Origin: a virus
Reading direction: 5' to 3' (one strand)
Length of the DNA: 64,000 bases
Virus record (IMG/VR): IMGVR_UViG_3300010413_000039
Location: 1-64,000 of that record
This document shows, piece after piece, positions 41,968 through 60,951 of this stretch; the first letter of the stretch is position 1; each line of letters opens with the position of its first letter. The notes beneath the pieces are model-generated. The model did not search any database. It was given only the letters and a program-made list of their open reading frames with translations, and was not told the origin of the DNA. Position numbers and translations under genes: made by a program.

Positions 41968-42437
41968 AATTCACGCCATCCTATTCTGTCAAGTGTTGTA
42001 TCTGCCTGTTGCTGTAATTCCTTTTCCTTTTCCAGTATGTCGGATGCTATGACCTTTGTACTGTACAGATCATTCAACGTGAAGATCAGGGTTGAATAAT
42101 TTCTGTACTTCCACCTTGAATCAGTAAACAGTATTTCCAAAGATTTTATAGCAAGTTCTATATCACCATTGAAGATGTTAAATAATATTTCTTTAGCCTG
42201 TGCTGTCTCTCTTGCTATTTTGTGTTTGTTTATTCTCCAAGCACTCTGAGAAGTACCCTTAGTAAGCCATAGAGAATAAAGTTTTTCATACTTACGGATG
42301 AATATATTAATTGGGTCTTCAACATCTTCTGAAAACCAGTCTCCATTGTGTATAATTATGCTTGTTCCACATGATGGGCATACCCCGCCCTTACGCCTTT
42401 TGCTGTGTTCAGTATTGCATTTAGGACATATCGGCAT
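41964..42437 (-). CDS. Zinc-finger protein upstream of the polymerase (157 aa)
   Basis: ATG 42437 follows AAAGGACTTGATA. The N-terminus is a four-cysteine zinc ribbon (CPKCNTEH ... CPSCGTS) and the rest is helical (INIFIRKYEKLYSLWLTKG). It is coupled to the polymerase by an ATGA overlap. It may be a primase-like or single-strand-binding accessory, but no catalytic motif is seen. Confidence 0.6.
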   Translation of the reverse strand: MPICPKCNTEHSKRRKGGVCPSCGTSIIIHNGDWFSEDVEDPINIFIRKYEKLYSLWLTKGTSQSAWRINKHKIARETAQAKEILFNIFNGDIELAIKSLEILFTDSRWKYRNYSTLIFTLNDLYSTKVIASDILEKEKELQQQADTTLDRIGWREL

Positions 42438-42690
42438 TATCAAGTCCTTTCTTTTTCATGATCATTTTTCTGACATTATCAAACGTAGGATCATTAAGAA
42501 CTAACTGCCTCCCATATGTATTAAATTCTACCATAAATTCACCGAGACATTCTCTGAGAAGTGTGGTTTTATCTATGTTGTTATGTCCAGCAAACTCAGT
42601 TAACCACTCATCAACATCCTGTGTAACTGTAAATCTAAGCATTACGTCTTTTCTTTTACCTGCAGGTAATGGTTTTCTACCTCTCTTCAT
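42421..42690 (-). CDS. Ribbon-helix-helix-like small DNA-binding protein (89 aa)
   Basis: ATG 42690 follows AGGAG at 8 bases. The basic N-terminus MKRGRKPLPAGKRKDV is followed by MLRFTVTQDVDEWLTEFAGHN, a strand-helix-helix layout typical of RHH/CopG-type regulators. It could regulate the early or replication operon. Overlaps both neighbours. Confidence 0.55.
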   Translation of the reverse strand: MKRGRKPLPAGKRKDVMLRFTVTQDVDEWLTEFAGHNNIDKTTLLRECLGEFMVEFNTYGRQLVLNDPTFDNVRKMIMKKKGLDNADMS

Positions 42691-42871
42691 GGTTATCACT
42701 CCTACTATCCAGTATAATCACGTCATCCGAATTTTCTATAGACCTTCCATAAATTAGATATGGTTTATCTTGATCATAGTAATATTCACGCCCGTTATAT
42801 TTAAATACGAAAACTACTTTCCTACCAAATATCCTTGATGGTATTGTTGGGCTGATAAAATTAGGCATCAT
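42677..42871 (-). CDS. Small protein of unknown function (64 aa)
   Basis: AAGGAG lies seven bases before the ATG. Beta-rich, basic and aromatic (VVFVFKYNGREYYYDQDK). Overlaps both neighbours. No family recognised. Confidence 0.55.
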   Translation of the reverse strand: MMPNFISPTIPSRIFGRKVVFVFKYNGREYYYDQDKPYLIYGRSIENSDDVIILDSRSDNHEER

Positions 42872-45426: not shown

Positions 45427-45565
45427 GCTTTCTCCTTATTGCTGTTATAAGAATGAATGCTGATACAGATATTGGTACTGCTAACCACTGTTCTGGTACT
45501 TCTATACGGAACATAAGTGATACCAGCAGTCCTATCGTAATGGATGCCAAGAAATTAAGAGCCAT
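45419..45565 (-). CDS. Very small membrane protein (48 aa)
   Basis: Reads MALNFLASITIGLLVSLMFR ... SVSAFILITAIRRKHE: two hydrophobic segments and a basic tail. ATG overlaps the end of the methyltransferase gene by 11 bases, and its end overlaps the next start, so it sits snugly in the operon. Confidence 0.5.
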   Translation of the reverse strand: MALNFLASITIGLLVSLMFRIEVPEQWLAVPISVSAFILITAIRRKHE

Positions 45566-46995: not shown

Positions 46996-47039
46996 ATTAT
47001 ACCATAGTCAGGCACAAATTAGATTAAGGTTTGATTAGT
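46996..47039 (-). promoter_or_regulatory. Type B promoter (two 11-bp-spaced boxes, TATAAT)
   Basis: Minus strand: ACTAATC (47039-47033), CTTAATC (47028-47022), TATAAT (47001-46996). Box 2 overlaps the -35 position and there is no TTGACA. Same geometry as seven other promoters. Serves the methyltransferase 2 operon. Confidence 0.75.
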
Positions 47040-47045
47040 GCTGTA

Positions 47046-47300
47046 TTAAGAACCTGCCATTAGAAGTTTGAGGGCATCATCATTATCATAGTTATATATC
47101 CACATTGCCATGCAGAATACTTGAAAAGCATACTCAAAGCTAGGAAAGTAATCTGATTCATGTACTATCCTGTTTGGTATAGGATCAGACAAATCCACTA
47201 TGAGATAGTACCAACCTCTCTCCCCAAACTCTGCAGATGGTGCATCGTTGAAATACAGTCGGTATTCAAAACCATTTAGAATATAAGTATCAACTAGCAT
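47046..47300 (-). CDS. Small protein of unknown function (84 aa)
   Basis: Overlaps the upstream gene by 11 bases; AGAGGTTACAATTCT before ATG. Sequence MLVDTYILNGFEYRLYFNDA ... suggests a beta-rich fold with a C-terminal helix. No family. Confidence 0.55.
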   Translation of the reverse strand: MLVDTYILNGFEYRLYFNDAPSAEFGERGWYYLIVDLSDPIPNRIVHESDYFPSFEYAFQVFCMAMWIYNYDNDDALKLLMAGS

Positions 47301-47589
47301 AGAATTGTAACCTCTCTTGTAATTTATTCAGGCTGTTTGTTTCCGATATCAGGACTTCCCATCCAGTCATCACATCCCATACCTTCTGGCATTCGCTGAT
47401 GACTTTCAAAACGATCACCTGATTTTTATTCACAGCGTATAGCTCACCAGTGTCCTCTACCCAACTTACCCGATATGGTATAGGATCGCCTTCCAGTTTC
47501 CACCACACGCCGAAATCACGTTCATTTGATTTCAGTCTTACATCTGATTCCATCAACCACTTTTCGTACACACTGAATATGTTATCCAT
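47290..47589 (-). CDS. Small protein of unknown function (99 aa)
   Basis: Its ATG lies 1 base after the upstream stop, with GGATATGTGG upstream. Soluble alpha/beta protein (MDNIFSVYEKWLMESDVRLK). No family. Confidence 0.55.
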   Translation of the reverse strand: MDNIFSVYEKWLMESDVRLKSNERDFGVWWKLEGDPIPYRVSWVEDTGELYAVNKNQVIVLKVISECQKVWDVMTGWEVLISETNSLNKLQERLQFYAS

Positions 47590-47590
47590 T

Positions 47591-48028
47591 TTACCACATA
47601 TCCTCTGGTATAAATTCCCATGTGAATGTTACCCGTCCTTCATTATCCGCATCTATCTTAGTGCATTTAAACAGTTTGCGGATTATGTAACGTGGATCAC
47701 GATGTTCTATAGTAAACCACTTACGATCTCCAAACACAGCACTGTTATGTGGGTGTGCAGGATCATCTATCAGGGCACTTCCATATTCCTGCAGATCGTG
47801 GAAGAATGACACTGGTTTGGTGGGCTTTGGTGATAGAACATAGTCCACCACTACTCCATTTAATGAAAGGTTTATATCTGATATAGTAGCCTTATACATA
47901 TTTCCAGTAGCGTATCGGTAGACATATGTCTTAGTCGGTATGTTTGCAAACTCAGCATTTTCAACATCGAGCCGATGGATGAGTATGTCATCTTTAGTCC
48001 AGTAGTTTAGTTTCAGATTTACTGCCAT
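47591..48028 (-). CDS. Protein of unknown function (145 aa)
   Basis: TGGAGGAATC precedes the ATG. Beta-rich 145-residue protein (MAVNLKLNYWTKDDILIHRL). It overlaps the upstream gene by 10 bases. No family. Confidence 0.6.
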   Translation of the reverse strand: MAVNLKLNYWTKDDILIHRLDVENAEFANIPTKTYVYRYATGNMYKATISDINLSLNGVVVDYVLSPKPTKPVSFFHDLQEYGSALIDDPAHPHNSAVFGDRKWFTIEHRDPRYIIRKLFKCTKIDADNEGRVTFTWEFIPEDMW

Positions 48029-48267
48029 GATTCCTCCATATCCACTGCATACACATTCTTATAACCGATATCTTCAAGCTCTTCCAGCAGGGACTGATAC
48101 TCACCTCTCCATGCAGGTGTGGTATCTTCTCTTACCCAAGCACGTGAGCACTCACCATGTTGACCGACATGAGCATAGCACAAGTAATTCCCTGCATTGG
48201 CTTGCTCTTGGATCAACACTGCAGTGATCTCACCTTCAAACTTGCAGAAATAAACTGGTGTACCCAT
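48019..48267 (-). CDS. Small protein of unknown function (82 aa)
   Basis: Start at ATG 48267 because GAGGAGAATC precedes it; a more distal ATG at 48300 lies too close to the -10 at 48307. Sequence MGTPVYFCKFEGEITAVLIQ ... acidic C-terminus. No family. Confidence 0.6.
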   Translation of the reverse strand: MGTPVYFCKFEGEITAVLIQEQANAGNYLCYAHVGQHGECSRAWVREDTTPAWRGEYQSLLEELEDIGYKNVYAVDMEESWQ

Positions 48268-48306
48268 GATTCTCCTCACGTGACTTTCAAATGTTGACAT
48301 GTAAAT

Positions 48307-48350
48307 ATTATACCACAGGATAATGTCAGTAACATTAGAGAATGATTAAT
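48307..48350 (-). promoter_or_regulatory. Type B promoter
   Basis: Minus strand: ATTAATC (48350-48344), TCTAATG (48339-48333), TATAAT (48312-48307). Overlaps the end of the upstream gene. Confidence 0.75.
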
Positions 48351-48714
48351 CTTCATTGCACAAAGCACAACGTCTGCGAAAGAAGTCAGTACCATTGACA
48401 GTATCCATGAAATACCCTTTACCATGACAGTCTGGACAAGATACCTTTGTCATCTTGGTGATCTTCATATTTTCAGATTGTTTATTCACACTCCACCTGT
48501 AACCATGATATTCAAACTCCATATAATCAGGTGAATAATGAAGTAGCTCACCATCATCCAAGAGCGCATCATACATTGGATCATCTTCTGAGAGTTTCTT
48601 CTCATTCAGATAGAAATTGAAACCATCCGCATAAGCACCGGCATTCTCTGGAATGTAGGTAAAACCAAACTTGGCATCACGATAACCTATTTGAAAATCA
48701 GACATATAAGACAT
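48346..48714 (-). CDS. Zinc-knuckle protein (122 aa)
   Basis: AAAGGAGATAACTG precedes ATG. The C-terminus has CPDCHGKGYF ... CALCNED, a DnaJ-like half zinc finger; the N-terminus (SDFQIGYRDAKFGFTYIPEN) recalls small ribosome- or tRNA-modulating phage proteins only loosely. Confidence 0.6.
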   Translation of the reverse strand: MSYMSDFQIGYRDAKFGFTYIPENAGAYADGFNFYLNEKKLSEDDPMYDALLDDGELLHYSPDYMEFEYHGYRWSVNKQSENMKITKMTKVSCPDCHGKGYFMDTVNGTDFFRRRCALCNED

Positions 48715-48735
48715 CAGTTATCTCCTTTGGTATGA

Positions 48736-48987
48736 TTAATTCCATCCGTGACAGCCATCATAGTGACTGTCGTATCTCTTATCAGGCTGATACTTGAAGA
48801 AAGGCAGGGTGTCCTTAGATGGTACGGTTCTCCCGCACTCCATACACATTGACATTCTACCTGATAGATCAGGTGTATCATTGTCTACCACATTATAACC
48901 TGCGTTGATACCTGCACAGATAACACATACTGGATTTCCATTACGATCTGAACCGTTTGCCATATGACCACATTTCATCTTAGGCAT
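48736..48987 (-). CDS. Small zinc-finger protein (83 aa)
   Basis: ATG 48987 is chosen: GGAGG lies 6 bases upstream, while ATG 48993 has no spacing. MPKMKCGHM...CVIC and MCMECGRTVPSK give two zinc-knuckle pairs. Possibly a host-takeover protein. Confidence 0.6.
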   Translation of the reverse strand: MPKMKCGHMANGSDRNGNPVCVICAGINAGYNVVDNDTPDLSGRMSMCMECGRTVPSKDTLPFFKYQPDKRYDSHYDGCHGWN

Positions 48988-49192
48988 TTTCATCCTCCAT
49001 TATTGCACATATAATAACTGTCGTGTCTCTTTCCTGATCAAACAAGATAACCAAAGGTTTAGTCCTGACAAATGTATCATTGTCTACCTTGAATGATACG
49101 ATGTGATTGACGTTGACAGATGTAAAATCTTTCAGGTTGATCTCTATGGTGATATTCTGGTGTTTATATGGTAGTACATATTCAGCTTTCAT
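48980..49192 (-). CDS. Small protein of unknown function (70 aa)
   Basis: CGGAGATAAT before ATG. Beta-rich (MKAEYVLPYKHQNITIEINL). Overlaps the zinc-finger gene by 8 bases. No family. Confidence 0.55.
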   Translation of the reverse strand: MKAEYVLPYKHQNITIEINLKDFTSVNVNHIVSFKVDNDTFVRTKPLVILFDQERDTTVIICAIMEDENA

Positions 49193-49255
49193 ATTATCTC
49201 CGTTTAACCCTACAGTACCGAAAGAACGAGCCGACCCCGATTTTTCCCCATCAGA

Positions 49256-49450
49256 TTATAGTATCAAGAATAGGAGTATACAGGGTAAGCACAACACTGC
49301 TAATGAGACTAATCCTATCAGAATACTCATGATACTTATAGTACATGATGCCAGTCCAGCCAGCATCTTCATTGGAAGAATGATAAGTATCTCGAACACT
49401 AACAGGATCACGTCAAATATATTTTCTAAAAAAGATTTATTTTTTGTCAT
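49256..49450 (-). CDS. Small membrane protein (64 aa), apparently leaderless
   Basis: Hydrophobic protein with two long membrane helices (IFDVILLVFEILIILPMKML; ISIMSILIGLVSLAVLCLPC). The ATG starts 7 bases after the TATAAT of its promoter, so the mRNA should begin at or near the start codon. Confidence 0.55.
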   Translation of the reverse strand: MTKNKSFLENIFDVILLVFEILIILPMKMLAGLASCTISIMSILIGLVSLAVLCLPCILLFLIL

Positions 49451-49457
49451 AAAGTTA

Positions 49458-49501
49458 ATTATACCTCAGATTTATTCTGATAAAATTAATATAAGATTAG
49501 T
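49458..49501 (-). promoter_or_regulatory. Type B promoter, leaderless output
   Basis: Minus strand: ACTAATC (49501-49495), ATTAATT (49490-49484), TATAAT (49463-49458). The start codon of the membrane protein is 7 bases downstream. Confidence 0.75.
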
Positions 49502-49508
49502 AAATTAT

Positions 49509-49925
49509 TTACAGGGTTTCCAGATATGTGAACAGTTTATCCAGATGATCACGATCAAACATCTCGGTGCTATGGATGTACCCTGTGTATGCACCTTTCA
49601 CATCTACACGTACACATTCACCCACTGTTACCCGTACTATATCAGAATTTGATCCGTCTTTATTGATACGGTTTACAGCGTCCATTAACTCTTCTATTGT
49701 CCTCATGTTATCCTTTATATCAACATATATATTGGTGTAGGTAGGTGATAGGTAGATGCCCATACCCTGTTGATGCTTTTCCATGATCCTTTGTACTCTT
49801 TCTGTGCTGGCTGATGTAAGTTTCATATATGATCTTACAGTACCATTACACCTCATAAAGTTTACATTAGAAAATCCAGCTTTGATGTGTGACCAGTAGG
49901 ATACAGAAGTAATATAAGTCTTCAT
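49509..49925 (-). CDS. Small early protein, paralogue 1 of 3 (138 aa)
   Basis: TTGGAGAGATAAT precedes ATG 49925. Shares a layout with the next two genes: S-x-W near the N-terminus (SVSYWSHIKAGFSNVNFMRC), an AS/TS-x-x-R motif (SASTERVQRIMEKH) and SPTYTNIYVD. The C-terminal 60 residues are extra. Function unknown. Confidence 0.6.
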   Translation of the reverse strand: MKTYITSVSYWSHIKAGFSNVNFMRCNGTVRSYMKLTSASTERVQRIMEKHQQGMGIYLSPTYTNIYVDIKDNMRTIEELMDAVNRINKDGSNSDIVRVTVGECVRVDVKGAYTGYIHSTEMFDRDHLDKLFTYLETL

Positions 49926-49926
49926 A

Positions 49927-50142
49927 TTATCTCTCCAAGATGACAGATACATTGGTATGGATTGGCGTAATCACTACGCTGGTATTGTATTTATACGCCT
50001 CAAATATTCTTGAAAGTCTTCTGCAGGATGCTTTGGTAGGGTGTGGATACCTGCCTATTTTCAGGGATTCCCCTTCATGCCTGATAAACCTTACAACGGA
50101 TAAACCGTCATTGAATGTCCAGTGTGAAATTAGAAGTCTCAT
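49927..50142 (-). CDS. Small early protein, paralogue 2 of 3 (71 aa)
   Basis: Preceded by AAGGACGGGTATA. MRLLISHWTFNDGLSVVRFI ... KASCRRLSRIFEAYKYNTSV ... ITPIHTNVSV aligns with its two neighbours. Starts after, and may be coupled to, the gene at 50154. Confidence 0.6.
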   Translation of the reverse strand: MRLLISHWTFNDGLSVVRFIRHEGESLKIGRYPHPTKASCRRLSRIFEAYKYNTSVVITPIHTNVSVILER

Positions 50143-50153
50143 TATACCCGTCC

Positions 50154-50393
50154 TTATTCAAACAGTATAAATAGATTGGTATAATGGCTGGATAGGTTTA
50201 CGTTAACCCTGTCTCTATGCTTGAAGAATACTTCATCCAGCCTCTTATATGATGCAGGTGTAATATTCCTGTATGTATGACGTGATGCATACACATATCC
50301 CCTATCCACAGGATCACTCCTACAAAAGTTTACACTCTGCCAAGTATTTTGGGTATAATTCCAGTATGAGATCATACTGATTCTATTCTTCAT
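50154..50393 (-). CDS. Small early protein, paralogue 3 of 3 (79 aa)
   Basis: AGGGTAAC upstream of ATG. MKNRISMISYWNYTQNTWQS ... NITPASYKRLDEVFFKHRDR ... LSSHYTNLFI aligns with the two downstream genes. Its TAA stop is part of the AAGGACGGGTA binding site of the next gene. Confidence 0.6.
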   Translation of the reverse strand: MKNRISMISYWNYTQNTWQSVNFCRSDPVDRGYVYASRHTYRNITPASYKRLDEVFFKHRDRVNVNLSSHYTNLFILFE

Positions 50394-50394
50394 G

Positions 50395-50601
50395 TTACCC
50401 TACCTTATTGGATTCAACTACATCAGGTGAAAGATATCCATTGGTTGCCACACTTGTGGGAACAACAGCCCACTTGTCGAGGGTGAACCATCGACTGTAC
50501 AGATCATTGCCATATGCTTTGGCATCTTCAACAGTTTCAAACTCCAAAGCATTGGTTGCATATGAACGTCCACCTACTTCTAAACACCACACTTTATACA
50601 T
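50395..50601 (-). CDS. Small protein of unknown function (68 aa)
   Basis: AGGAGG precedes two adjacent ATGs (50604, 50601); the second has better spacing. YKVWCLEVGGRSYATNALEF ... resembles small SH3-like or DUF-type proteins. No firm family. Confidence 0.55.
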   Translation of the reverse strand: MYKVWCLEVGGRSYATNALEFETVEDAKAYGNDLYSRWFTLDKWAVVPTSVATNGYLSPDVVESNKVG

Positions 50602-50610
50602 CATATCCTC

Positions 50611-50874
50611 CTATGAATTTGACCATTCAACTAACAGTTCTTTAATGACGTGTTCTGCATCTGAGAAATTATCCCCGTATAACTTCTCGGAGAGGAAACT
50701 AGCCAGATCATACAGACCTGCAACACACATTGTCTTCACCAGTTGTTTGTTATGCTGTAGGCGTTCTTTCTCGCTCAGCTTTTCATCTTCTGCAGTAATC
50801 ATCTCTTCCATATTCCGAATAATGATTACTTTATTTCCAAGTGCCGGTAACAAATATTGTATGTCAGCTTTCAT
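50611..50874 (-). CDS. Small helical protein (87 aa)
   Basis: ATG 50874 follows GGAGGTTCAA; an ATG at 50898 lies 3 bases from the -10. Helical, acidic (KADIQYLLPALGNKVIIIRN ... VIKELLVEWSNS). No family. Confidence 0.6.
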   Translation of the reverse strand: MKADIQYLLPALGNKVIIIRNMEEMITAEDEKLSEKERLQHNKQLVKTMCVAGLYDLASFLSEKLYGDNFSDAEHVIKELLVEWSNS

Positions 50875-50900
50875 TTGAACCTCCATTTCGATATGCATTA

Positions 50901-50944
50901 ATTATAGCACACATTTACACACTTTACATTAATATCACATTAGA
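50901..50944 (-). promoter_or_regulatory. Type B promoter
   Basis: Minus strand: TCTAATG (50944-50938), ATTAATG (50933-50927), TATAAT (50906-50901). Serves the operon from 50874 leftward. Confidence 0.75.
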
Positions 50945-51163
50945 AATTTGGGTGTCCTATTACCCGTCCTTTTAAGTGGTGTCCTATACCCGTCCTTTAA
51001 TAAGACTAACCAGGTAGGAATTATCCAGGATAAATCGGATAGGATTGGTAGAAATAAGCTATTGGATAAATAAGATAAACTTTGTCCGATTTATTCCCTC
51101 GGGTGGATTATCATCCTCTCAGCCACAGGGTCGACACTGCACAGGGGTGTGTGTTTTCTGATG
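50945..51163 (-). ncRNA. Structured non-coding region, member of the 'TAATCCACCC' family
   Basis: No gene in 219 bases between two type B promoters. The upstream promoter at 51171 would transcribe only this segment before the next promoter. Reading the minus strand it contains GATGATAATCCACCC (near 51113-51099) followed by a hairpin GGAATAAAT/ATTTATCC, shared with the regions at 54.3 and 58.7 kb. Near 50960-51000 there are two tandem copies of a binding-site-like unit (AAAGGACGGGTA) without start codon, perhaps remains of lost genes. Confidence 0.5.
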
Positions 51164-51170
51164 TAGTTAT

Positions 51171-51214
51171 ATTATACCACAATCCAATCCCCCTGAGATT
51201 AATATTAGATTAGA
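51171..51214 (-). promoter_or_regulatory. Type B promoter for the 51-kb RNA
   Basis: Minus strand: TCTAATC (51214-51208), ATTAATC (51203-51197), TATAAT (51176-51171), with GGGGGATTGG between box 2 and the -10, as also at 52673. Confidence 0.75.
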
Positions 51215-51223
51215 AAAACCTGG

Positions 51224-51469
51224 CTAAACAAGGAAACACTGGCTGTTGTGATCCCAAGTAATGTGTACGAGGGCATCATCATTATAAAACTCTTTAAGAG
51301 CCTGCAGGATAGGTTCTTTATCCAGCTTTATATAAGTGAAGAAGATGTAGTGATATACCGGCACTTCATCGTAGCTCAGGATTTCAACCAGCTTTTCAAC
51401 AGTGAGCCAAACCTGTGCAGTACCAGCACTGGCATTCCCAACCATCTTGTCAAATTTAGTTTTGTACAT
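51224..51469 (-). CDS. Small protein of unknown function (81 aa)
   Basis: Preceded by the recurrent AAGGACGGGTAACA binding site. Alpha/beta (MYKTKFDKMVGNASAGTAQV ... ALVHITWDHNSQCFLV). No family. Confidence 0.55.
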   Translation of the reverse strand: MYKTKFDKMVGNASAGTAQVWLTVEKLVEILSYDEVPVYHYIFFTYIKLDKEPILQALKEFYNDDALVHITWDHNSQCFLV

Positions 51470-51481
51470 TGTTACCCGTCC

Positions 51482-51772
51482 TTATACTTGATTCGTTTCT
51501 TCAAGATAATCTATAACCATTGACCTGCAGACCCTATTGATGCAGTATCTGAATTTCTTTTTATCTATACCATAATCATCATTCTCATTATACAGATCAC
51601 ATGCTCTGTTAACTACCTCAGTGATCCCGTCTGAGTTAACCATCTGATATAGAATCCACGCAAGGTTTCTTCCCTCATGTTCATAGTCAGGTTCATCCAG
51701 CATTCCTGCTTTAGGGTCAACGATCTTTGTGCCTTCTGGTACATATAATTCCACTTCCATATACTGTGTCAT
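51482..51772 (-). CDS. Small protein of unknown function (96 aa)
   Basis: Preceded by AAAAGGACGGGTAAAG, which also encodes the end of the upstream gene. Acidic N-terminus, helical remainder (MTQYMEVELYVPEGTKIVDP ... CRSMVIDYLEETNQV). No family. Confidence 0.55.
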   Translation of the reverse strand: MTQYMEVELYVPEGTKIVDPKAGMLDEPDYEHEGRNLAWILYQMVNSDGITEVVNRACDLYNENDDYGIDKKKFRYCINRVCRSMVIDYLEETNQV

Positions 51773-51774
51773 CT

Positions 51775-51924
51775 TTACCCGTCCTTTTTAGTAAATATAA
51801 ATATACCTGATATTATACCACATGAAATTACGATCAGGTTATTAATCAGATTAAACTCTGGTGAGAATAACCATATCCAGCCGACAGATAATATAACTAT
51901 AATGATCCCTATTACACGTAACAT
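51775..51924 (-). CDS. Very small membrane protein ending KKDG (49 aa)
   Basis: Reads MLRVIGIIIVILSVGWIWLF ... NNLIVISCGIISGIFIFTKKDG: two membrane helices. Start preceded by AAAGGACGGGTAACG. Its final codons and stop (AAG GAC GGG TAA) are the binding site of the next gene. A type B promoter lies inside it. Confidence 0.6.
   Translation of the reverse strand: MLRVIGIIIVILSVGWIWLFSPEFNLINNLIVISCGIISGIFIFTKKDG
51812..51855 (-). promoter_or_regulatory. Type B promoter inside a gene
   Basis: Minus strand: TTTAATC (51855-51849), a weaker TAATAAC (51844-51838), TATAAT (51817-51812) with TGTGG. Geometry identical to the other seven although it lies in the coding sequence of the 49-residue protein. 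Confidence 0.65.
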
Positions 51925-51926
51925 CG

Positions 51927-52196
51927 TTACCCGTCCTTTAAATTAACTGTCATAACAGGCTGACGCTTTGTATACCTGTCTTTTAATTCCTCTTCCGATA
52001 CGTACTTGTATGTAGGGTGTCCTATGCGTTTCATGTGATACAGCTTGCAGTCCCCATAATTCTGCACAGCTATAGCATCATAAGCATAGTCAACTACCCA
52101 TAGAGTCTTGGATCGGTTGTTAATATAGACATCTCCGCATTCATCTGGATAGTCCCCTACATAGACATCTATGCCAAGAGAGTTCCTTATAAACAT
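51927..52196 (-). CDS. Small protein of unknown function ending NLKDG (89 aa)
   Basis: Start ATG 52196 after AGGGACGGGTAAA. Beta-rich protein (MFIRNSLGIDVYVGDYPDEC ... QPVMTVNLKDG). The last codons form the next gene's binding site. No family. Confidence 0.6.
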   Translation of the reverse strand: MFIRNSLGIDVYVGDYPDECGDVYINNRSKTLWVVDYAYDAIAVQNYGDCKLYHMKRIGHPTYKYVSEEELKDRYTKRQPVMTVNLKDG

Positions 52197-52197
52197 T

Positions 52198-52404
52198 TTA
52201 CCCGTCCCTCTTTGCTTTAACCCACTGCATGACGGTTTGGATTTCTTCAAATGTCATAGGTGCTTGGTTAACAAACAGTGGGCGCAGGGTGTGTACCCTG
52301 AATACAAGCATGGCATTAATAGCCACGCCAAATTGATTCTCGATATCCACAACTACAGAGTCGTCCTTCTCAGGATACTCTCTGAAATTAAAATAAGTCG
52401 GCAT
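52198..52404 (-). CDS. Small protein of unknown function ending AKRDG (68 aa)
   Basis: Three ATGs in a row; the third (52404) is best spaced from GGAAG. Alpha/beta (MPTYFNFREYPEKDDSVVVD ... FEEIQTVMQWVKAKRDG). Overlaps the upstream zinc protein. Ends in the KRDG-stop form of the GGACGGGTAA unit. Confidence 0.55.
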   Translation of the reverse strand: MPTYFNFREYPEKDDSVVVDIENQFGVAINAMLVFRVHTLRPLFVNQAPMTFEEIQTVMQWVKAKRDG

Positions 52405-52654
52405 CATCATCTTCCATCCCGAACATATTAGAGAAACATGTACCGCATATGCCAGTCATCATCAGTTCCCTATTATCACGAGAGACATAGGGGAATGCTG
52501 TCTGGATATGCATTCCGTTGTGATAGTTGTATAGATCACGGGCGTTGATGGTGATGTCGGTCACACTGCCACAGTCCACACATTTGCAGTGGAATGTGTA
52601 CTCATGATCTGGTTCATATGTTTCATCATAAGGTTGTGTTAAGAAATGTTGCAT
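52388..52654 (-). CDS. Small zinc-finger protein (88 aa)
   Basis: ATG 52654 follows ACGGAGGATAAT; the ATG at 52672 touches the -10 and cannot be transcribed. CKCVDCGSVT ... CGTCFSN supply zinc ligands. Acidic end (MEDDDADLF). No family. Confidence 0.6.
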   Translation of the reverse strand: MQHFLTQPYDETYEPDHEYTFHCKCVDCGSVTDITINARDLYNYHNGMHIQTAFPYVSRDNRELMMTGICGTCFSNMFGMEDDDADLF

Positions 52655-52672
52655 ATTATCCTCCGTACTCAT

Positions 52673-52716
52673 ATTATACCATAAACCAATCCCCCAAACA
52701 TTAATGTTAGCTTAGA
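52673..52716 (-). promoter_or_regulatory. Type B promoter
   Basis: Minus strand: TCTAAGC (52716-52710), ATTAATG (52705-52699), then GGGGGATTGG, TATAAT (52678-52673). Overlaps the end of the upstream gene. Confidence 0.75.
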
Positions 52717-53126
52717 GAGGGGTATACGTCCTCAAAGTAATCTACCCAACCTTCCATGATGTTTGCGCTCTTCTCCGCATATCCACTAACTACTGCACAG
52801 ATCAGGGTACGTACCATATGGTTGTCCTTAGACAGATATTCATCACACAACTGCTGGAATGCCTTCCGAGAAAATCTGCTGGTGCTCTTCACACCACAGT
52901 ATACCCCATCAGTGGGTACATACTCTCTAACCATGTCACTGTATGTCATTGGCTGGACTGACAGGTAGTACCCACGTTCTACGTCCTTACCTGTAAAGTA
53001 ATTATATCCCCCCAAATTATAATACATTTTCACTTCCATAGCGTTAACCTTTGGCAAACCATCTGCCTGCAGGATAATGCTATTCTCAAACTTATTATTG
53101 ATTTTCTTTATAATTTCGCCTATCAT
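52707..53126 (-). CDS. Protein of unknown function (139 aa)
   Basis: GAAAGGACACAGATACT precedes ATG. Sequence MIGEIIKKINNKFENSIILQ ... with CGVKSTSRFSRKAFQQLCDE. Alpha/beta, no known motif. Confidence 0.6.
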   Translation of the reverse strand: MIGEIIKKINNKFENSIILQADGLPKVNAMEVKMYYNLGGYNYFTGKDVERGYYLSVQPMTYSDMVREYVPTDGVYCGVKSTSRFSRKAFQQLCDEYLSKDNHMVRTLICAVVSGYAEKSANIMEGWVDYFEDVYPSLS

Positions 53127-53169
53127 AGTATCTGTGTCCTTTCCTCAGAATAAATCGCTAAAATGTGCC

Positions 53170-53769
53170 TTATTTTCTAATTTCAAAGGGCTTATCCCAC
53201 TTACCTACACCAGTGTGTAACCAGTAGTTTGTGCAGAAGTAATCTACCATAGGATCACTCTTATCCCACCTGTAATACAGTGCTATGGTATATACCAGTT
53301 CCATCAGTGCACGTCCTCTTGCAGTAAGACGATACTCATTCTTAGGGTAATAGTGATTGGTCTGCATATAATGATCGCTCTCATTCATGCAAACCTCATA
53401 CGGTGCAGACATCAGGTATACATTAATGCAGTCAGTCCCTGATCCTCTACCATCACGAGTCACTGAGAATTTAATGTCCTTTCCAAAGACGTATTTCAGG
53501 GTTGACCTGATCCATTTAACGATCTCATGTGCTGGCATTCCAGATACGGGTGTGCTGTGGATAACCTCTTCCCACCTGTCGTACTCTTCATCGAAATTAA
53601 CAGGATCGGATTCCCCGTCCTCATTAACTCTAATATGATGATAGTGCTCATATCTGAGCAGGGTATAGTTTGTTAACCTTACAGCATCATCATATCCCCC
53701 CTCAACGTCTACTTTGGTTTCCCCTAACTGATTATCATTTTCATCATACCACTTGATATTATATTTCAT
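53170..53769 (-). CDS. Protein of unknown function (199 aa)
   Basis: ATG 53769 follows TGGAGGCAGTC. One of the largest proteins of the right arm: an N-terminal beta domain (MKYNIKWYDENDNQLGETKV) and a middle with KFSVTRDGRGSGTDCINVYL, followed by a helical end. No family recognised. Confidence 0.6.
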   Translation of the reverse strand: MKYNIKWYDENDNQLGETKVDVEGGYDDAVRLTNYTLLRYEHYHHIRVNEDGESDPVNFDEEYDRWEEVIHSTPVSGMPAHEIVKWIRSTLKYVFGKDIKFSVTRDGRGSGTDCINVYLMSAPYEVCMNESDHYMQTNHYYPKNEYRLTARGRALMELVYTIALYYRWDKSDPMVDYFCTNYWLHTGVGKWDKPFEIRK

Positions 53770-53787
53770 GACTGCCTCCATACATAT

Positions 53788-53831
53788 ATTATATCACAAT
53801 AATGTCCCCCTAACATTAATGTGTGATTAGC
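53788..53831 (-). promoter_or_regulatory. Type B promoter
   Basis: Minus strand: GCTAATC (53831-53825), ATTAATG (53820-53814), TATAAT (53793-53788). GGGGGACATT lies between box 2 and the -10. Confidence 0.75.
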
Positions 53832-54075
53832 GCATCAACTCAAACTGAACAGTGATATTTCCACGAGTATCAAGATAAATTCCACTGAGCTTGCCGGTCA
53901 TTCGCTCACCAGCTACATCAAATGCATACGGACAGTCGCTGGCATATACCTTAAGGTTAAGGTAGCGGTTCTCTTCTGGTGCTGGTTCATTGACCTCAGT
54001 AGTATTAATCGCCAGAATGCTTTCCTTCCCTTTCTTCTCACTGTCAAATAAGACTTCCTCGATTATCAGTTTCAT
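53827..54075 (-). CDS. Small protein of unknown function (82 aa)
   Basis: ATGGAGGCACGCAG before ATG. Beta-rich, charged (MKLIIEEVLFDSEKKGKESI ... ). G/C-richer than its neighbours. No family. Confidence 0.6.
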   Translation of the reverse strand: MKLIIEEVLFDSEKKGKESILAINTTEVNEPAPEENRYLNLKVYASDCPYAFDVAGERMTGKLSGIYLDTRGNITVQFELMR

Positions 54076-54104
54076 CTGCGTGCCTCCATCTGTAAGATGT
54101 CTAC

Positions 54105-54165
54105 ATTATACTACGATCTGCAGGTTAAGCAAGAGTAAATTGATCACTCTCATGAAACATTAATG
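54105..54165 (-). promoter_or_regulatory. Type A promoter (boxes upstream of -35)
   Basis: Minus strand: CATTAAT (54165-54159), CATGAGA (54154-54148), -35 TTGCTT (54132-54127), 16 bases, TATAAT (54110-54105). Serves the 82-residue gene. Confidence 0.75.
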
Positions 54166-54167
54166 TT

Positions 54168-54183
54168 AGTACACATGTGTACT
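54168..54183. promoter_or_regulatory. 16-bp palindromic operator AGTACACATGTGTACT
   Basis: Identical to the site at 44828, placed 2 bases upstream of the first box of the type A promoter at 54105. Confidence 0.5.
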
Positions 54184-54478
54184 GGATAAATTGGATCAGC
54201 TTTATCGGATATATCCAGTCCGAAAAAGCTAACAAAGTAGACCAGGATTGTCGCATTAGTATGTGGATAAATCGGATCGGAGTAGTCCGAATTTATTCCA
54301 GGGGTGGATTATCATCTTCTTGGTCTCCTGGTCACACCACACAAGGGTCTGGTTATCATGCCACCTATACGGGCTGTTATGTGTGGTGGAGGACTACTGT
54401 CCCGTCCCCCACCATCTTTGGATTTCTCTCCGTTTACCTGATCCCGTTGCACTCTCCTTTTGTCTACTCCGTTCTTAT
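54184..54478 (-). ncRNA. Structured non-coding RNA, 'TAATCCACCC' family (about 295 nt)
   Basis: No coding frame fits on the minus strand, yet a strong promoter (54485) feeds exactly this segment, which ends before the next promoter. In minus orientation it contains GATGATAATCCACCC, then a hairpin with arms GGAATAAAT and ATTTATCC enclosing CGGAC/TCCG pairs, then GACAATCCTGGTC, and the 3' core TATCCGATAAAGCTGATCC. The same order is found near 58.7 kb, with compensating base changes in the hairpin. The 5' half has complementary GGTGG / CCACC segments. Confidence 0.6.
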
Positions 54479-54484
54479 GATACA

Positions 54485-54545
54485 ATTATACCAGATACCG
54501 GCAGACTGTCAAGGGTATCTGGTATGTTCTCATAAAACATTAATA
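54485..54545 (-). promoter_or_regulatory. Type A promoter with inverted repeat around the -35
   Basis: Minus strand: TATTAAT (54545-54539), TATGAGA (54534-54528), TTGACA (54512-54507), 16 bases, TATAAT (54490-54485). A perfect 12-bp inverted repeat, ATACCAGATACC (54488-54499) and GGTATCTGGTAT (54514-54525), flanks the -35, so a dimeric repressor could cover the promoter. Confidence 0.82.
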
Positions 54546-54884
54546 TAAGAATGATCTCTTTTCAACATGATCTATGCACAGATCGAGTGTATACCGTCTG
54601 ATCAGGTTATCATTAGAATCCCTGATCTCAGCACCAGTAACACCATCTTCTGTGTTCATTATAGTTTCAACTACCTTAAAGATCAGAGCAGGTGTAGCCA
54701 TATCACCACGAATGATAACGGTTTCCCCACTGGTAAAATAGATTGATGCTATCATCTGAATAGATGTTATGACTGGTTTATACCCACAGTCAAAGCAGTT
54801 CGTGTTCAGTGATCCCATCTGCCCACCACAGTGTGGACACTGTTCTGGCCAGCTTGTAATATTTCCATCTTTCCAGTTCGTCAT
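54540..54884 (-). CDS. Zinc-ribbon protein (114 aa)
   Basis: N-terminal CPHCGGQMGSLNTNCFDCGY is a clear zinc ribbon. Then a beta-rich domain (IASIYFTSGETVIIRGDMAT). Its ATG overlaps the stop of the basic protein upstream (ATGA). RBS AGAGAGGTAAGAA. Confidence 0.65.
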   Translation of the reverse strand: MTNWKDGNITSWPEQCPHCGGQMGSLNTNCFDCGYKPVITSIQMIASIYFTSGETVIIRGDMATPALIFKVVETIMNTEDGVTGAEIRDSNDNLIRRYTLDLCIDHVEKRSFLY

Positions 54885-55009
54885 TTCTTACCTCTCTTTA
54901 CCTGTTCCTGCTGGATAATGAATACAGATTTGCTGTCTACCTGCATACCACGCTTACGCTTGCGTTTCTGTTCTCGTTTCTCTGATTTATATTCTGATCG
55001 TGTTCTCAT
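54881..55009 (-). CDS. Very basic 42-residue protein
   Basis: Reads MRTRSEYKSEKREQKRKRKR, then GMQVDSKSVFIIQQEQVKRG and KK. Joined to both neighbours by ATGA overlaps, which makes it a credible coupled gene despite its size. Strong positive charge suggests RNA or DNA binding. Confidence 0.6.
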   Translation of the reverse strand: MRTRSEYKSEKREQKRKRKRGMQVDSKSVFIIQQEQVKRGKK

Positions 55010-55347: not shown

Positions 55348-55376
55348 ATGTGTGCCTCCTGTATCGTTATATGTGT

Positions 55377-55437
55377 ATTATAACAGAAAAACCCCTGATG
55401 TCAAGAGCTATCAGGGGTTTCTCATGTTGCTCTAATG
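55377..55437 (-). promoter_or_regulatory. Type A promoter with inverted repeat around the -35
   Basis: Minus strand: CATTAGA (55437-55431), CATGAGA (55426-55420), TTGACA (55404-55399), 16 bases, TATAAT (55382-55377). AAACCCCTGA (55389-55398) and TCAGGGGTTT (55411-55420) form a 10-bp inverted repeat across the -35; it could also act as terminator for the RNA arriving from upstream. Confidence 0.82.
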
Positions 55438-55616
55438 TTAGCGGAGGCGGTCTAACACTAGACAATAGGGTCTTATGGTTTGCGTTCAGTCTCCCTAACT
55501 TACCATGAGCTAGATCATCAACAGCCTACATAAGACCCTGATCTGACGTGCGCCCACCAGCACACACTCTCCTATCGAGTGGATTTGTCGTCAACGTGCA
55601 CCCTATTGGTCAGTCC

Positions 55617-56394: not shown

Positions 56395-56454
56395 ATTATA
56401 CTACAATTTCTTTGTTTGTCAAGGGTATTTCGTGTTTCTAATCTTACATTAATA
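56395..56454 (-). promoter_or_regulatory. Type A promoter for the 950-nt RNA
   Basis: Minus strand: TATTAAT (56454-56448), GATTAGA (56443-56437), TTGACA (56422-56417), 16 bases, TATAAT (56400-56395). Confidence 0.82.
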
Positions 56455-56913
56455 TCGTGGGACTTTCACCCACATGGTGGGACTTTCCCACCAGTATTAT
56501 TCTTTACCTGTCCATTGGATTTAGTCCTCCAGTGAGACACATATTTTATCTGGATGGTCTCACGCTGTCCAGTGATTATCTTCTACACTCTTGGGGGCAT
56601 TCTACGTCACAGCCATTGTAGACATCGGTCTTTGGCTATCGGCTGTCTGACCTGCCCCCAAGAGGGCAGAAAATCTCAGGCTATTGTGATCTCTCGGACA
56701 CTTATCACCTTACTTAGCTGGTCGGTCGTTTCCACTACCAGTACCTGAAATATTCTGTTGTTAAGGTTCTGACAGAACCCCTCCAGTCTTAGTGCCTAGT
56801 GTAGGTCTAGTGGGTCTTCGAGTCTCGCTCTACTTGCCTCACCGCTCACTACCTGTTATGGTAGGTGCACATTGGCTGGACTGCCTACTCAGAATGTTAA
56901 GGTTCTGTCTTAT
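56455..56913 (-). ncRNA. Second structured RNA (about 460 nt)
   Basis: From the type A promoter at 56920 to the boxes of the next promoter there is no gene. The minus strand begins AGAACCTTAACA, as does the 950-nt RNA; a third copy lies at 56769. A perfect 10-bp pairing CTTGGGGGCA/TGCCCCCAAG joins 56662-56653 with 56599-56590 as inverted repeats. The 3' end has two tandem GAAA-loop hairpins (56492-56476 and 56473-56457), both with GTGGG/CCCAC-type stems. GGTTCTGTCAGAACC forms another hairpin. Confidence 0.6.
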
Positions 56914-56919: not shown

Positions 56920-56979
56920 ATTATAGCATGTTTCAGATATTTGTCAAGGGTTTTAAGGTGTTCTCATGAAACATTAATG
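56920..56979 (-). promoter_or_regulatory. Type A promoter for the 460-nt RNA (three boxes)
   Basis: Minus strand: CATTAAT (56979-56973), CATGAGA (56968-56962), CTTAAAA (56957-56951), TTGACA (56947-56942), 16 bases, TATAAT (56925-56920). The three boxes are exactly 11 bp apart. Confidence 0.85.
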
Positions 56980-57237
56980 TTAGGGTGTTACCCCTATTAC
57001 CCCTATTAAACACTGCTCACCACCTTGGCATGGAAAGCCAAACACAGGTTCATTGCCAACAACGTGGTTTCTGATGTCGTTTAAGTATACCTTATAAGTA
57101 CAGACTGTATCACCTATCTCACCACCAGTGCAGGTGTCGGTCAACGGATTCGACCCTGCATCCACAGGTTGTACAGCCACCAACAACATTACCACACCTA
57201 CCACCAGCACTACCAGAATAAGCACAACGGTTTTCAT
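56980..57237 (-). CDS. Small secreted or membrane-anchored protein (85 aa)
   Basis: AAAAGGAGTCAATC before ATG. Signal-type N-terminus (MKTVVLILVVLVVGVVMLLV AVQPVDA cleavage site), then a short Cys-rich exported domain (CTGGEIGDTVCTYKV ... FPCQGGEQCLIG). It may modify the host surface, for example in superinfection exclusion; unproven. Confidence 0.6.
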   Translation of the reverse strand: MKTVVLILVVLVVGVVMLLVAVQPVDAGSNPLTDTCTGGEIGDTVCTYKVYLNDIRNHVVGNEPVFGFPCQGGEQCLIGVIGVTP

Positions 57238-57981: not shown

Positions 57982-58042
57982 ATTATATCAGGTTATAGTA
58001 TCCTGTCAATAGTATTTTAGGTATTCTCATAATTCTTTAATG
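57982..58042 (-). promoter_or_regulatory. Type A promoter
   Basis: Minus strand: CATTAAA (58042-58036), TATGAGA (58031-58025), CTAAAAT-like third box, TTGACA (58009-58004), 16 bases, TATAAT (57987-57982). Confidence 0.82.
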
Positions 58043-58212
58043 TGGGTGGTGGGCTACAAATTCCCGTCTCTTTTATCACTCACGTGGAGAGGCTTACAAC
58101 CCTCTCAGGACTTTACACCGACACCTGCCACCTAGTAGTGTTCTCAGGTACACTGCCACCTGTACCGCAGGGTCTTGACGTAGGGTCTCCGATATGTCCC
58201 TACACCACCCAC
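58042..58212 (-). ncRNA. Structured 3' region closed by a 10-bp stem
   Basis: GTGGGTGGTG on the minus strand (58212-58203) pairs perfectly with CACCACCCAC (58051-58042), closing 150 bases that contain no gene and several GC-rich complementary pieces (GGAGAGG-type, GGTGGCAG repeated twice). It lies after the gene at 58220 and may be its 3' untranslated structure or a separate small RNA. Confidence 0.5.
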
Positions 58213-58509: not shown

Positions 58510-58569
58510 ATTATAACACATTATAGAATGTTGTCAAGTGTTTTAAGCCTCTCTAATCAAACATTAATC
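58510..58569 (-). promoter_or_regulatory. Type A promoter (three boxes)
   Basis: Minus strand: GATTAAT (58569-58563), GATTAGA (58558-58552), CTTAAAA (58547-58541), TTGACA (58537-58532), 16 bases, TATAAT (58515-58510). Boxes exactly 11 bp apart. Confidence 0.85.
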
Positions 58570-58573
58570 TTTC

Positions 58574-58803: not shown

Positions 58804-58863
58804 AGTATACCAGAAAATCCCCTCTTGTCAAGGGGATTCTGGCTTTCTCATGAAACATTAATC
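58804..58863 (-). promoter_or_regulatory. Type A promoter with inverted repeat around the -35
   Basis: Minus strand: GATTAAT (58863-58857), CATGAGA (58852-58846), TTGACA (58831-58826), 16 bases, TATACT (58809-58804). CCAGAAAATCCCC (58810-58822) and GGGGATTCTGG (58832-58842) form an imperfect inverted repeat across the -35. Confidence 0.8.
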
Positions 58864-59039
58864 TATGCGAGTCTCGTGCCTCGGATGTATAGAGGAAAGG
58901 ATTCTTCATCATCTTCAAGAATCACCTCGCCTGAGAAATCATAATCATCAGAGAAATCATCCTCTAGGCACTGGTCACACAGCCCATCATCTTCCTCGTT
59001 TATTAATGTTCCACATCCCACGCAAAGATATCTTTCCAT
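58863..59039 (-). CDS. Small acidic zinc-ribbon protein (58 aa)
   Basis: AAGGAGTCTAAT before ATG 59039. MERYLCVGCGTLINEEDDGL, then CDQC, gives a compact zinc ribbon; the rest is very acidic (DDFSDDYDFSGEV, LEDDEESF). The layout resembles small phage proteins that bind host RNA polymerase or nucleases, but nothing identifies a target. Confidence 0.6.
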   Translation of the reverse strand: MERYLCVGCGTLINEEDDGLCDQCLEDDFSDDYDFSGEVILEDDEESFPLYIRGTRLA

Positions 59040-59506: not shown

Positions 59507-59566
59507 ATTATACCAGAAAATGCTAGCCTGTCAAGCGATTTAAGACATTCTAATAAATCTCTAATG
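59507..59566 (-). promoter_or_regulatory. Type A promoter (three boxes)
   Basis: Minus strand: CATTAGA (59566-59560), TATTAGA (59555-59549), CTTAAAT (59544-59538), TTGACA (59534-59529), 16 bases, TATAAT (59512-59507). Confidence 0.85.
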
Positions 59567-59640
59567 TGACAAATCGGACTAGCTTTATCGGATAATTTCA
59601 CTCCGAATAAGCTGATAAAGTTGACCAGGATTGTCCTATT
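59567..59640 (-). repeat. Short copy of the structured RNA core repeat
   Basis: Minus strand: GGACAATCCTGGTCAACTT, then TTATCCGATAAAGCTAGTCC and GATTTGTC. It matches the 3' halves of the 54-kb and 58-kb RNAs, but the 5' half (TAATCCACCC part) is missing. It follows the terminator of the gene at 59694. Confidence 0.6.
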
Positions 59641-60760: not shown

Positions 60761-60822
60761 ATAATACTACGAATTTTAATTCTTGCATAGGGTAAATTCG
60801 ATACTCTAATAATCCTTTAATG
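60761..60822 (-). promoter_or_regulatory. Type A promoter (weak -35)
   Basis: Minus strand: CATTAAA (60822-60816), TATTAGA (60811-60805), TCGAATT (60801-60795), -35 ATGCAA (60788-60783), 16 bases, -10 TATTAT (60766-60761). A poor core with good boxes suggests strong dependence on the box-binding protein. Confidence 0.65.
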
Positions 60823-60951
60823 TTGTCCTTTAGTACCTAAAATTAACCATAGTCCAAACATAACACCTAATACTAATAGTACAGTGCTTAAACTCACGTC
60901 ATATGATTGTATATTTATATAATCCGTTAGTATTGTCATTATTATGTCCAT
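60817..60951 (-). CDS. Very small membrane protein (44 aa)
   Basis: ATG 60951 follows AAAGGATATATA. MDIIMTILTDYINIQSYDVS, then a membrane helix (VLLVLGVMFGLWLILG) and TKGQH. Function unknown. Confidence 0.5.
   Translation of the reverse strand: MDIIMTILTDYINIQSYDVSLSTVLLVLGVMFGLWLILGTKGQH

What the first reader, a model, noticed from the sequence alone, without database searches (positions are those of the whole stretch)
46996..53831. Eight promoters with identically spaced 11-bp direct boxes replacing the -35
Seen: on the minus strand, box 1 (near [ACGT]CTAATC), box 2 (near ATTAATG) and TATAAT keep exactly the same distances in eight promoters. In plus coordinates the boxes start 26 and 37 bases right of the start of ATTATA, at 46996, 48307, 49458, 50901, 51171, 51812, 52673 and 53788. 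None has TTGACA. Inference: an activator binding direct repeats one helical turn apart contacts RNA polymerase at the -35, as PhoB does. This would be one switch for the whole early region.
Basis: partly seen in the sequence, partly recalled or inferred. Interest (0 to 1): 0.85.

Follow-up and report, generated by a model that had tools for sequence, protein, structure and literature searches.

The report
One phage operator, two mirrored promoter classes
An unstudied 68 kb phage carries the same paired-box DNA control site at about 17 of its gene switches, in one orientation where it replaces a normal promoter element and flipped upstream of the strongest promoters, as if one regulator protein governs its whole early gene region.

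Summary
The boxes are real. Seven of the eight minus-strand promoters carry YTAA(T/G)-N6-YTAAT-N21-TATAAT in exact register, with a TGn extended -10 and no -35. The eighth (51812) has its second box 2 bp off. Strict matches in this region: 6, against 0 in 300 shuffles.

The same 21-bp operator occurs inverted, at a fixed 42-44 bp offset, upstream of 10 further promoters (54.1-60.8 kb), eight of them with perfect TTGACA. Three replication-region promoters checked lack it.

Best reading: an OmpR/PhoB-type regulator (head-to-tail dimer on 11-bp direct repeats) contacts RNA polymerase in two geometries. Both resemble distances measured for Salmonella PhoP: direct 21-23 nt from the -10, reverse 37 nt (phage 20 and 37-38). 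In Clostridium, 7 of 7 close orthologues of one OmpR-family regulator gene have TTAAT-type boxes at 11-bp steps before a TATAAT.

No OmpR-type domain was found in the phage, so a host regulator is favoured; a diverged phage-encoded one remains possible. Five related records show no such promoters, so the system looks lineage-specific. Binding, timing and the sign of control at the early class are untested.

The parts
53811..53831 (-). M-class operator (direct orientation), -10 at 53788-53793
   Evidence: leave-one-out 18.1 bits
52696..52716 (-). M-class operator, -10 at 52673-52678; box 1 reads CTAAG
   Evidence: leave-one-out 16.8 bits
51835..51855 (-). degenerate M-class site, -10 at 51812-51817; second TTAAT displaced by 2 bp
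   Evidence: leave-one-out -6.2 bits
51194..51214 (-). M-class operator, -10 at 51171-51176; no SD-preceded ORF found downstream
   Evidence: leave-one-out 20.3 bits
50924..50944 (-). M-class operator, -10 at 50901-50906
   Evidence: leave-one-out 17.7 bits
49481..49501 (-). M-class operator, -10 at 49458-49463
   Evidence: leave-one-out 19.3 bits
48330..48350 (-). M-class operator, -10 at 48307-48312
   Evidence: leave-one-out 10.2 bits
47019..47039 (-). M-class operator, -10 at 46996-47001; a third TTAAT lies 11 bp further upstream
   Evidence: leave-one-out 17.8 bits; sequence
60805..60825 (+). E-class operator (inverted relative to its promoter), -10 TATTAT at 60761-60766 on the minus strand, weak -35
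   Evidence: 11.8 bits with the matrix made from M sites only; offset 44
59549..59569 (+). E-class operator, promoter TTGACA-16-TATAAT with -10 at 59507-59512 (-)
   Evidence: 13.3 bits, offset 42
58846..58866 (+). E-class operator, -10 TATACT at 58804-58809 (-), TTGACA
   Evidence: 17.1 bits, offset 42
58552..58572 (+). E-class operator, -10 at 58510-58515 (-), TTGACA
   Evidence: 24.9 bits, offset 42
58025..58045 (+). E-class operator (weak), -10 at 57982-57987 (-), TTGACA
   Evidence: 5.6 bits, offset 43
56962..56982 (+). E-class operator, -10 at 56920-56925 (-), TTGACA
   Evidence: 21.2 bits, offset 42
56437..56457 (+). E-class operator, -10 at 56395-56400 (-), TTGACA; followed by the tRNA-like gene
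   Evidence: 18.0 bits, offset 42
55420..55440 (+). E-class operator, -10 at 55377-55382 (-), TTGACA
   Evidence: 12.9 bits, offset 43
54528..54548 (+). E-class operator, -10 at 54485-54490 (-), TTGACA
   Evidence: 13.2 bits, offset 43
54148..54168 (+). E-class operator, -10 at 54105-54110 (-), weak -35 (TTGCTT)
   Evidence: 21.2 bits, offset 43
42421..42699 (-). 92-aa phage protein, possible ribbon-helix-helix DNA-binding protein; weak candidate for a phage-encoded regulator
   Evidence: AlphaFold2 pLDDT 71.9; Foldseek matches include AvtR, ParD, CopG and Arc but none with E below 0.25; no Pfam or PDB sequence match

Best explanation
The 21-bp element TCTMATSWAACATTAATGTTA is the operator of a single OmpR/PhoB-type transcription factor that binds head to tail on two TMAT/TAAT cores 11 bp apart. 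Shown: at seven (eight with a degenerate one) M promoters the operator is in direct orientation and occupies the -35 position next to an extended -10; at ten E promoters the same operator is inverted and centred at about -59, upstream of mostly perfect TTGACA-16-TATAAT promoters. Inferred: at M promoters the factor supplies the contact that the missing -35 would give, so these promoters depend on it; at E promoters it contacts RNA polymerase from upstream, probably the alpha C-terminal domain, and raises already strong promoters. Both geometries resemble those in which Salmonella PhoP is known to activate. Because no OmpR-type domain was found in the phage, the factor is most likely a host response regulator, which would couple the whole early region to a host signal. 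Not shown: binding, transcription starts, timing, identity of the factor, sign of the effect at E promoters.
For: Register and statistics of the M class. With a matrix from the seven in-register M sites only, 9 plus-strand hits of 11 bits or more in 53841-61000 against a mean of 0.11 and a maximum of 2 in 100 dinucleotide shuffles; for 8 of 8 TTGACA promoters from 54485 to 59507 the best plus-strand site between 20 and 90 bp upstream is at offset 42 or 43, while the ninth TTGACA promoter (59944) and three promoters of the replication region (44354, 39327, 36686) have none. The direct repeat of the TMAT/TAAT core is kept in the 17 sites, whereas box 1 has no dyad and the dyad of box 2 is partial. 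Salmonella PhoP, passages of PMC3335776 read: 17-nt box made of two hexamers 5 nt apart; direct orientation works 12 or 21-23 nt upstream of the -10; reverse orientation was found at 30, 37, 47-49 and 58 nt and worked when placed at 27, 37 or 48 nt. The phage's equivalent 17-mer lies 20 nt (direct) and 37-38 nt (reverse; 39 at 60761) upstream of the -10 (positions). Clostridium: 7 of 7 orthologues (87-100% identity) of a Response_reg plus Trans_reg_C regulator have a TTAA-box pair at 11 bp, up to four TTAAT boxes, and a 20-nt gap to TATAAT; 0 of 7 paralogues at about 63% identity do. A second group of Clostridium promoters, upstream of a CYTH-domain gene, has the phage's exact 21-nt gap. PF00486 not found in the 68.4-kb record at E up to 10, control rings in 13 of 14 genomes; no DNA-binding Pfam family at E up to 0.05 among 49 early and middle ORFs.
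Against: No binding or expression data. Five related records (major capsid 55-89% identical) have no such promoters, although their early genes are mostly not homologous and the closest is a 14-kb fragment. The host is unknown, so the proposed regulator cannot be shown to exist there. E promoters already have consensus -35 and -10 and should need no activator. The M gap (20 nt) is 1 nt short of the PhoP range, and which strand of the phage box corresponds to PhoP's 'direct' is assumed. A missing Pfam match does not exclude a diverged phage protein. Of 54 stretches found in genomes, most look like chance; only 8 of 54 carry TTAATGTTA.
Confidence: 0.47

Rival explanations
1. The operator is bound by an unrecognised phage-encoded early protein that works as a two-way switch: made from the strong E promoters, it activates M promoters from the -35 position and damps or shuts off E promoters from the inverted upstream site, like phi29 p4 acting on A3 and on A2b/A2c.
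For: Classical early/middle logic: E promoters have consensus -35 and -10, M promoters lack a -35, and the two classes occupy separate adjacent blocks, 54.1-60.8 and 46.9-53.8 kb. The operator is absent from related records, as expected for a fast-evolving phage-specific regulator. phi29 p4 activates A3, whose -35 is poor, and represses A2b and A2c (passages of PMC3100819).
Against: No candidate regulator recognised among 49 ORFs. In the PhoP system a reversed box 37 nt upstream of the -10 activates. Two E promoters with weak -35 keep the operator, which does not suggest a shut-off device. Unrelated records share the box-to-TATAAT distance (L004 group; Clostridium).
Confidence: 0.3
2. The boxes are repressor sites (stoperator- or immunity-like): M promoters are extended -10 promoters that work unaided and a repressor covering their -35 region silences them, while the inverted sites tune E promoters.
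For: Extended -10 promoters can work without a -35 (general knowledge); an operator covering -50 to -30 could block polymerase.
Against: The fixed distance to the -10 in 7 of 8 M and 10 of 10 E sites is more than blocking needs; E operators centred near -59 do not overlap the core promoter; no integrase or repressor was recognised among the ORFs scanned (not every ORF of the record was scanned).
Confidence: 0.13
3. The regulator is the phage's own ribbon-helix-helix-like protein (42421-42699), with one dimer on each box, 11 bp apart as in Arc-type operators.
For: Sequence and model suggest a ribbon-helix-helix protein; Foldseek's weak matches include AvtR, ParD, CopG and Arc. Box 2 is partly palindromic.
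Against: No match is significant (best E 0.25), the short strand typical of the fold was not built in the model, box 1 is not palindromic, and the gene lies in the replication block rather than behind an E promoter.
Confidence: 0.07

Closest known systems
Salmonella PhoP regulon promoter architectures III and V (OmpR family), PMC3335776, passages read
   Same: Hexamer-N5-hexamer direct repeat; fixed distances; direct orientation near the -10 and reverse orientation about 37 nt upstream, used as two distinct architectures; box variants that go with architecture (here CTCATG in box 1 occurs in 5 of 10 E sites and 0 of 7 in-register M sites).
   Different: Box sequence is TAAT-based; the sites are on a phage; no PhoP or other OmpR-type gene found in the phage; architecture V promoters of Salmonella also carry a second box.
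T4 middle promoters (MotA box), PMC2988021, passages read
   Same: A phage element replaces the -35 while the sigma70 -10, often extended, is kept; early promoters are of the strong host type.
   Different: MotA box is a single site centred at -30, 12 or 13 bp from the -10, bound by a monomer together with AsiA; here two boxes, centred at -46.5 and -35.5, and the same operator recurs inverted at early promoters. No MotA or AsiA relative was recognised.
phi29 p4 switch at A2c/A2b/A3, PMC3100819, passages read
   Same: One sequence-specific protein acting on both an early and a later promoter class; the activated promoter has a poor -35.
   Different: p4 sites are inverted repeats (CTTTTT-15-AAAATG) in one control region; here direct repeats at 17 or 18 separate promoters.
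Cyanophage use of the host PhoB regulator (S-PM2d), PMC10976474, abstract and one results section read
   Same: Phage promoters bound by a host OmpR-family response regulator.
   Different: There a few scattered genes with poorly predictable boxes; here stereotyped sites at nearly every early-region promoter, regulator unknown.
lambda CII promoters (recalled; mentioned in a passage of PMC3335776)
   Same: Direct repeats around the -35 position of a promoter lacking a good -35.
   Different: Spacing, box sequence and the inverted second class differ.

Membership tests
OmpR/PhoB-family (class II or upstream) activator promoters | direct repeats at about one helical turn (11 bp) | tested here: met
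   7 of 8 M sites and the E sites
OmpR/PhoB-family (class II or upstream) activator promoters | fixed orientation-dependent distance to the -10 | tested here: met
   20 nt direct, 37-38 nt reverse (39 at 60761), compared with PMC3335776
OmpR/PhoB-family (class II or upstream) activator promoters | an OmpR-type regulator encoded in the same genome | tested here: not met
   PF00486 absent from the phage record; the host genome is unknown, so presence there could not be tested
OmpR/PhoB-family (class II or upstream) activator promoters | the regulator binds the boxes and activates | not testable with these tools
   needs gel shift or footprint and in vitro transcription
PhoB (Pho box) promoters in the strict sense | CTGTCAT-type repeats next to the -10 (recalled) | tested here: not met
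   box sequence YTAATS and position about 9 bp further upstream; the PhoB values are recalled
T4 MotA middle promoters | single MotA box (TGCTTtA) 12 +/- 1 bp from the -10 | tested here: not met
   two YTAAT boxes instead; MotA values from PMC2988021
phi29 p4 sites | inverted repeat CTTTTT-15-AAAATG | tested here: not met
   direct repeat of the core, no such inverted repeat in the aligned sites; p4 consensus from PMC3100819
conserved promoter class of this phage family | same boxes in relatives | tested here: not met
   0 of 5 records with related capsid proteins; matrix scan of 15 pieces, 263,902 bases, found 5 hits over 11 bits, none at such a promoter

The most novel reading that the evidence does not exclude
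A phage has wired nearly every promoter of its early region, 17 or 18 sites, to one host two-component response regulator, using the two mirror-image promoter geometries known for the OmpR family, so that the start of infection is gated by a host environmental signal.
Probability: 0.3. Interest if true: 0.82.

Novelty: new variant of a known kind. Interest (0 to 1): 0.6.

Why it matters
Phage promoters that replace the -35 with an activator site are known (T4 middle promoters), and a few phage genes are known to answer to host PhoB. A whole early region built from one operator in two fixed, opposite orientations has no counterpart in the papers found in my ten searches, which cover open-access text only. 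Either way the 21-bp operator is a ready bait for finding the protein, and the two geometries predict measurable dependence on orientation and helical phase.

Tried and rejected
Relatives: portal, DNA polymerase and the 203-aa protein at 53170-53781 gave no relatives in viral contigs; the major capsid protein gave five, family-level kin that share structural and replication genes but few early genes and lack the operator. No DNA match of 8827-18749 and no tblastn match of the portal among cultured phages.

Same pattern elsewhere: the M pattern in viral contigs gave 5 stretches, about what I would expect by chance from a hand estimate. Three of them (L002, L004, L005) are one phage group, unrelated to this one at protein level, with a perfect operator in exact register; the conditional chance of such a score is about 1.3e-4. 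L003 and L006 look like chance. Of 28 contigs with the bare 20-mer only that group has TATAAT at the distance. A second, weaker site in the L004 phage is no better than the reversed-pattern control. The E pattern gave two contigs: L007 is a good look-alike with a single site, L008 is weak; L015 is inside what looks like coding sequence and has no promoter. In genome contigs 54 stretches are mostly Clostridia and mostly chance by score; nine form one conserved Clostridium promoter group.

Error of mine: the pattern has a 20-nt gap between box 2 and TATAAT, not the phage's 21; it thereby found the response-regulator operons, whose gap is 20. I report them as analogues, not as exact matches. In one search I scanned only one strand and missed orthologues; one search repeats it correctly. 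One search printed nothing for the same reason and was replaced.

Regulator search: PF00486 absent; Pfam, PHROGs and NCBIfam scans of early ORFs gave no regulator (one PHROG annotated as Q-like antitermination matches one ORF at E 0.00095, not followed up). AlphaFold2 of the 138-aa early protein was too poor to use (pLDDT 42). A ribbon-helix-helix reading of 42421-42699 stayed weak. The palindrome of box 2 was considered as the recognition unit and set aside because it is partial and absent from box 1. The host was guessed as Chloroflexota from a YLPL-type motif in two secreted proteins (recalled association), untested.
Full report
WHAT IS THERE. The window is 64,000 of 68,390 bases of a virus record. 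Structural genes (portal, head protease, major head protein, tape measure) lie on the plus strand; Rad52-like, DnaB-like helicase and family A DNA polymerase genes and many small genes lie on the minus strand from about 35.9 kb on. No cultured phage is close (DNA polymerase relatives all below 60%, the best listed about 32-33%).

Eight TATAAT sites are at the stated positions. Numbering from the first T of TATAAT, the seven in-register sites read cTAATc at -37, TTAATg at -26 and T(G/A)TGn directly before TATAAT. 51812 keeps box 1 and the extended -10 but its second TTAAT is shifted by 2 bp. Shuffles give no such promoter in 300 trials against 6 observed. None has a usable -35: best match 2-3 of 6, as in random sequence.

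In the next block, 54.1-60.8 kb, lie nine TTGACA promoters with 16- or 17-bp spacers. A matrix made only from the seven M sites finds nine plus-strand hits of 11 bits or more there, against a mean of 0.11 and a maximum of 2 in 100 shuffles; one on the minus strand of the same block; two in 44.5 kb of the rest, both strands. Aligned with the promoters, 8 of 9 TTGACA promoters (all but 59944) have the operator inverted at offset 42 or 43, the weakest at 5.6 bits (57982). Two further sites (54148, 60805) sit at offset 43 and 44 from TATAAT and TATTAT with weak -35 elements. 59944 instead has TTAACC twice, 11 bp apart, just upstream of its -35. Promoters at 44354, 39327 and 36686, in the replication region, have no operator. 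Box 1 is CTCAT(G/A) in 5 of 10 E sites and never in the seven in-register M sites.

GEOMETRY. In promoter coordinates (TATAAT at -12 to -7), the M operator spans -50 to -30 (centre -40) and the E operator -69 to -49 or -70 to -50 (centre about -59), inverted. Expressed as hexamer-N5-hexamer, the distance to the -10 is 20 nt (M) and 37-38 nt (E; 39 at 60761). In Salmonella, PhoP boxes, also hexamer-N5-hexamer direct repeats, activate in direct orientation 12 or 21-23 nt upstream and in reverse orientation at positions including 37 nt, natural (pagK) and engineered; at any one position only one orientation works (passages of PMC3335776). The pair of geometries was found in the phage before I read that paper. 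The match to the direct class is 1 nt off and I assume, rather than know, that the phage's M orientation corresponds to PhoP's 'direct'.

AN ANALOGUE IN BACTERIA. A scan of genome contigs for the M pattern gave 54 stretches. Nine Clostridium loci share one conserved promoter with the exact 21-nt gap; in eight the first gene found is a CYTH-type protein (one tested against Pfam, E 3.7e-25), in the ninth (L077) the next gene. A related pattern, with a 20-nt gap, found a second conserved promoter, in front of a small protein and a response regulator with receiver and Trans_reg_C domains. Of 17 genomes of that genus group, 14 have a hit at E 1e-80 or better; the 7 at 87-100% identity all have a TTAA-box pair at 11 bp (three have four TTAAT boxes in a row) and a 20-nt gap to TATAAT; the 7 at about 63% have none. 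This is what an autoregulated OmpR-family gene would look like, though binding was not tested. It shows that boxes of this kind, at this distance, belong to such regulators elsewhere.

OTHER PHAGES. An unrelated phage group (L002, L004, L005) has one perfect operator in exact register with TATAAT in front of its packaging genes. L007 has one E-like promoter. Five records with related capsid proteins have no M pattern and no operator at their TTGACA promoters. So the element is not a family trait of this phage's kin.

HOW IT MOST LIKELY WORKS. Shown: one operator, two fixed mirror geometries, two adjacent promoter blocks. Inferred: one head-to-tail dimer of an OmpR-type factor activates both; M promoters depend on it, E promoters are boosted. 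The absence of a Trans_reg_C domain in the phage and of any recognised DNA-binding family among 49 early and middle ORFs favours a host factor. The alternative, an unrecognised phage protein that activates M and damps E as phi29 p4 does with A3 and A2b/A2c, fits the classical early/middle logic and is not excluded.

VERDICT. It is a new variant of a known kind: activator-dependent phage promoters of OmpR-type design, with an inverted second class.

Noticed in passing
56197-56317 (-): tRNA-like gene (Rfam tRNA 45.6 bits, gathering 29) with about 48 extra bases in the anticodon region, directly behind E promoter 56395; ARAGORN in intron mode calls it tRNA-Phe(gaa), which may be wrong.
   Followed up: partly
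58804, 56920, 54485 (E) and 51171 (M) transcription units: No Shine-Dalgarno-preceded ORF follows these promoters; the units of 58804, 54485 and 51171 share 69-74% identical stretches, suggesting early noncoding RNAs.
   Followed up: partly
promoters 58804, 55377, 54485 (-): Strong hairpins (z -4.9, -6.3, -4.2) overlap the -35 element, two followed by T-rich stretches, as if the terminator of one unit overlaps the promoter of the next.
   Followed up: partly
59944 promoter (-): TTAACC-N5-TTAACC direct repeat (11 bp) just upstream of the -35 instead of the operator.
   Followed up: no
3424-4626 (+): Glycosyl hydrolase family 10 (Pfam E 1.7e-43) in a phage, overlapping a tRNA-Ile gene at its automatic start.
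   Followed up: no
26319-26846 and 3424-4626 (+): Secreted-looking proteins with a YLPL/YLPF motif near the N terminus that I associate with Chloroflexota (recalled); possible host hint.
   Followed up: no
L101-L106, L131-L137: Conserved Clostridium operon of a small protein and an OmpR-family regulator behind TTAA-type boxes at 11-bp steps: probably an autoregulated two-component system.
   Followed up: partly
2301-3182 (+) and 45555-46559 (-): Two C-5 cytosine methylase-like genes (the second: Pfam E 1.3e-33; both hit the same place in L003 by tblastn).
   Followed up: no
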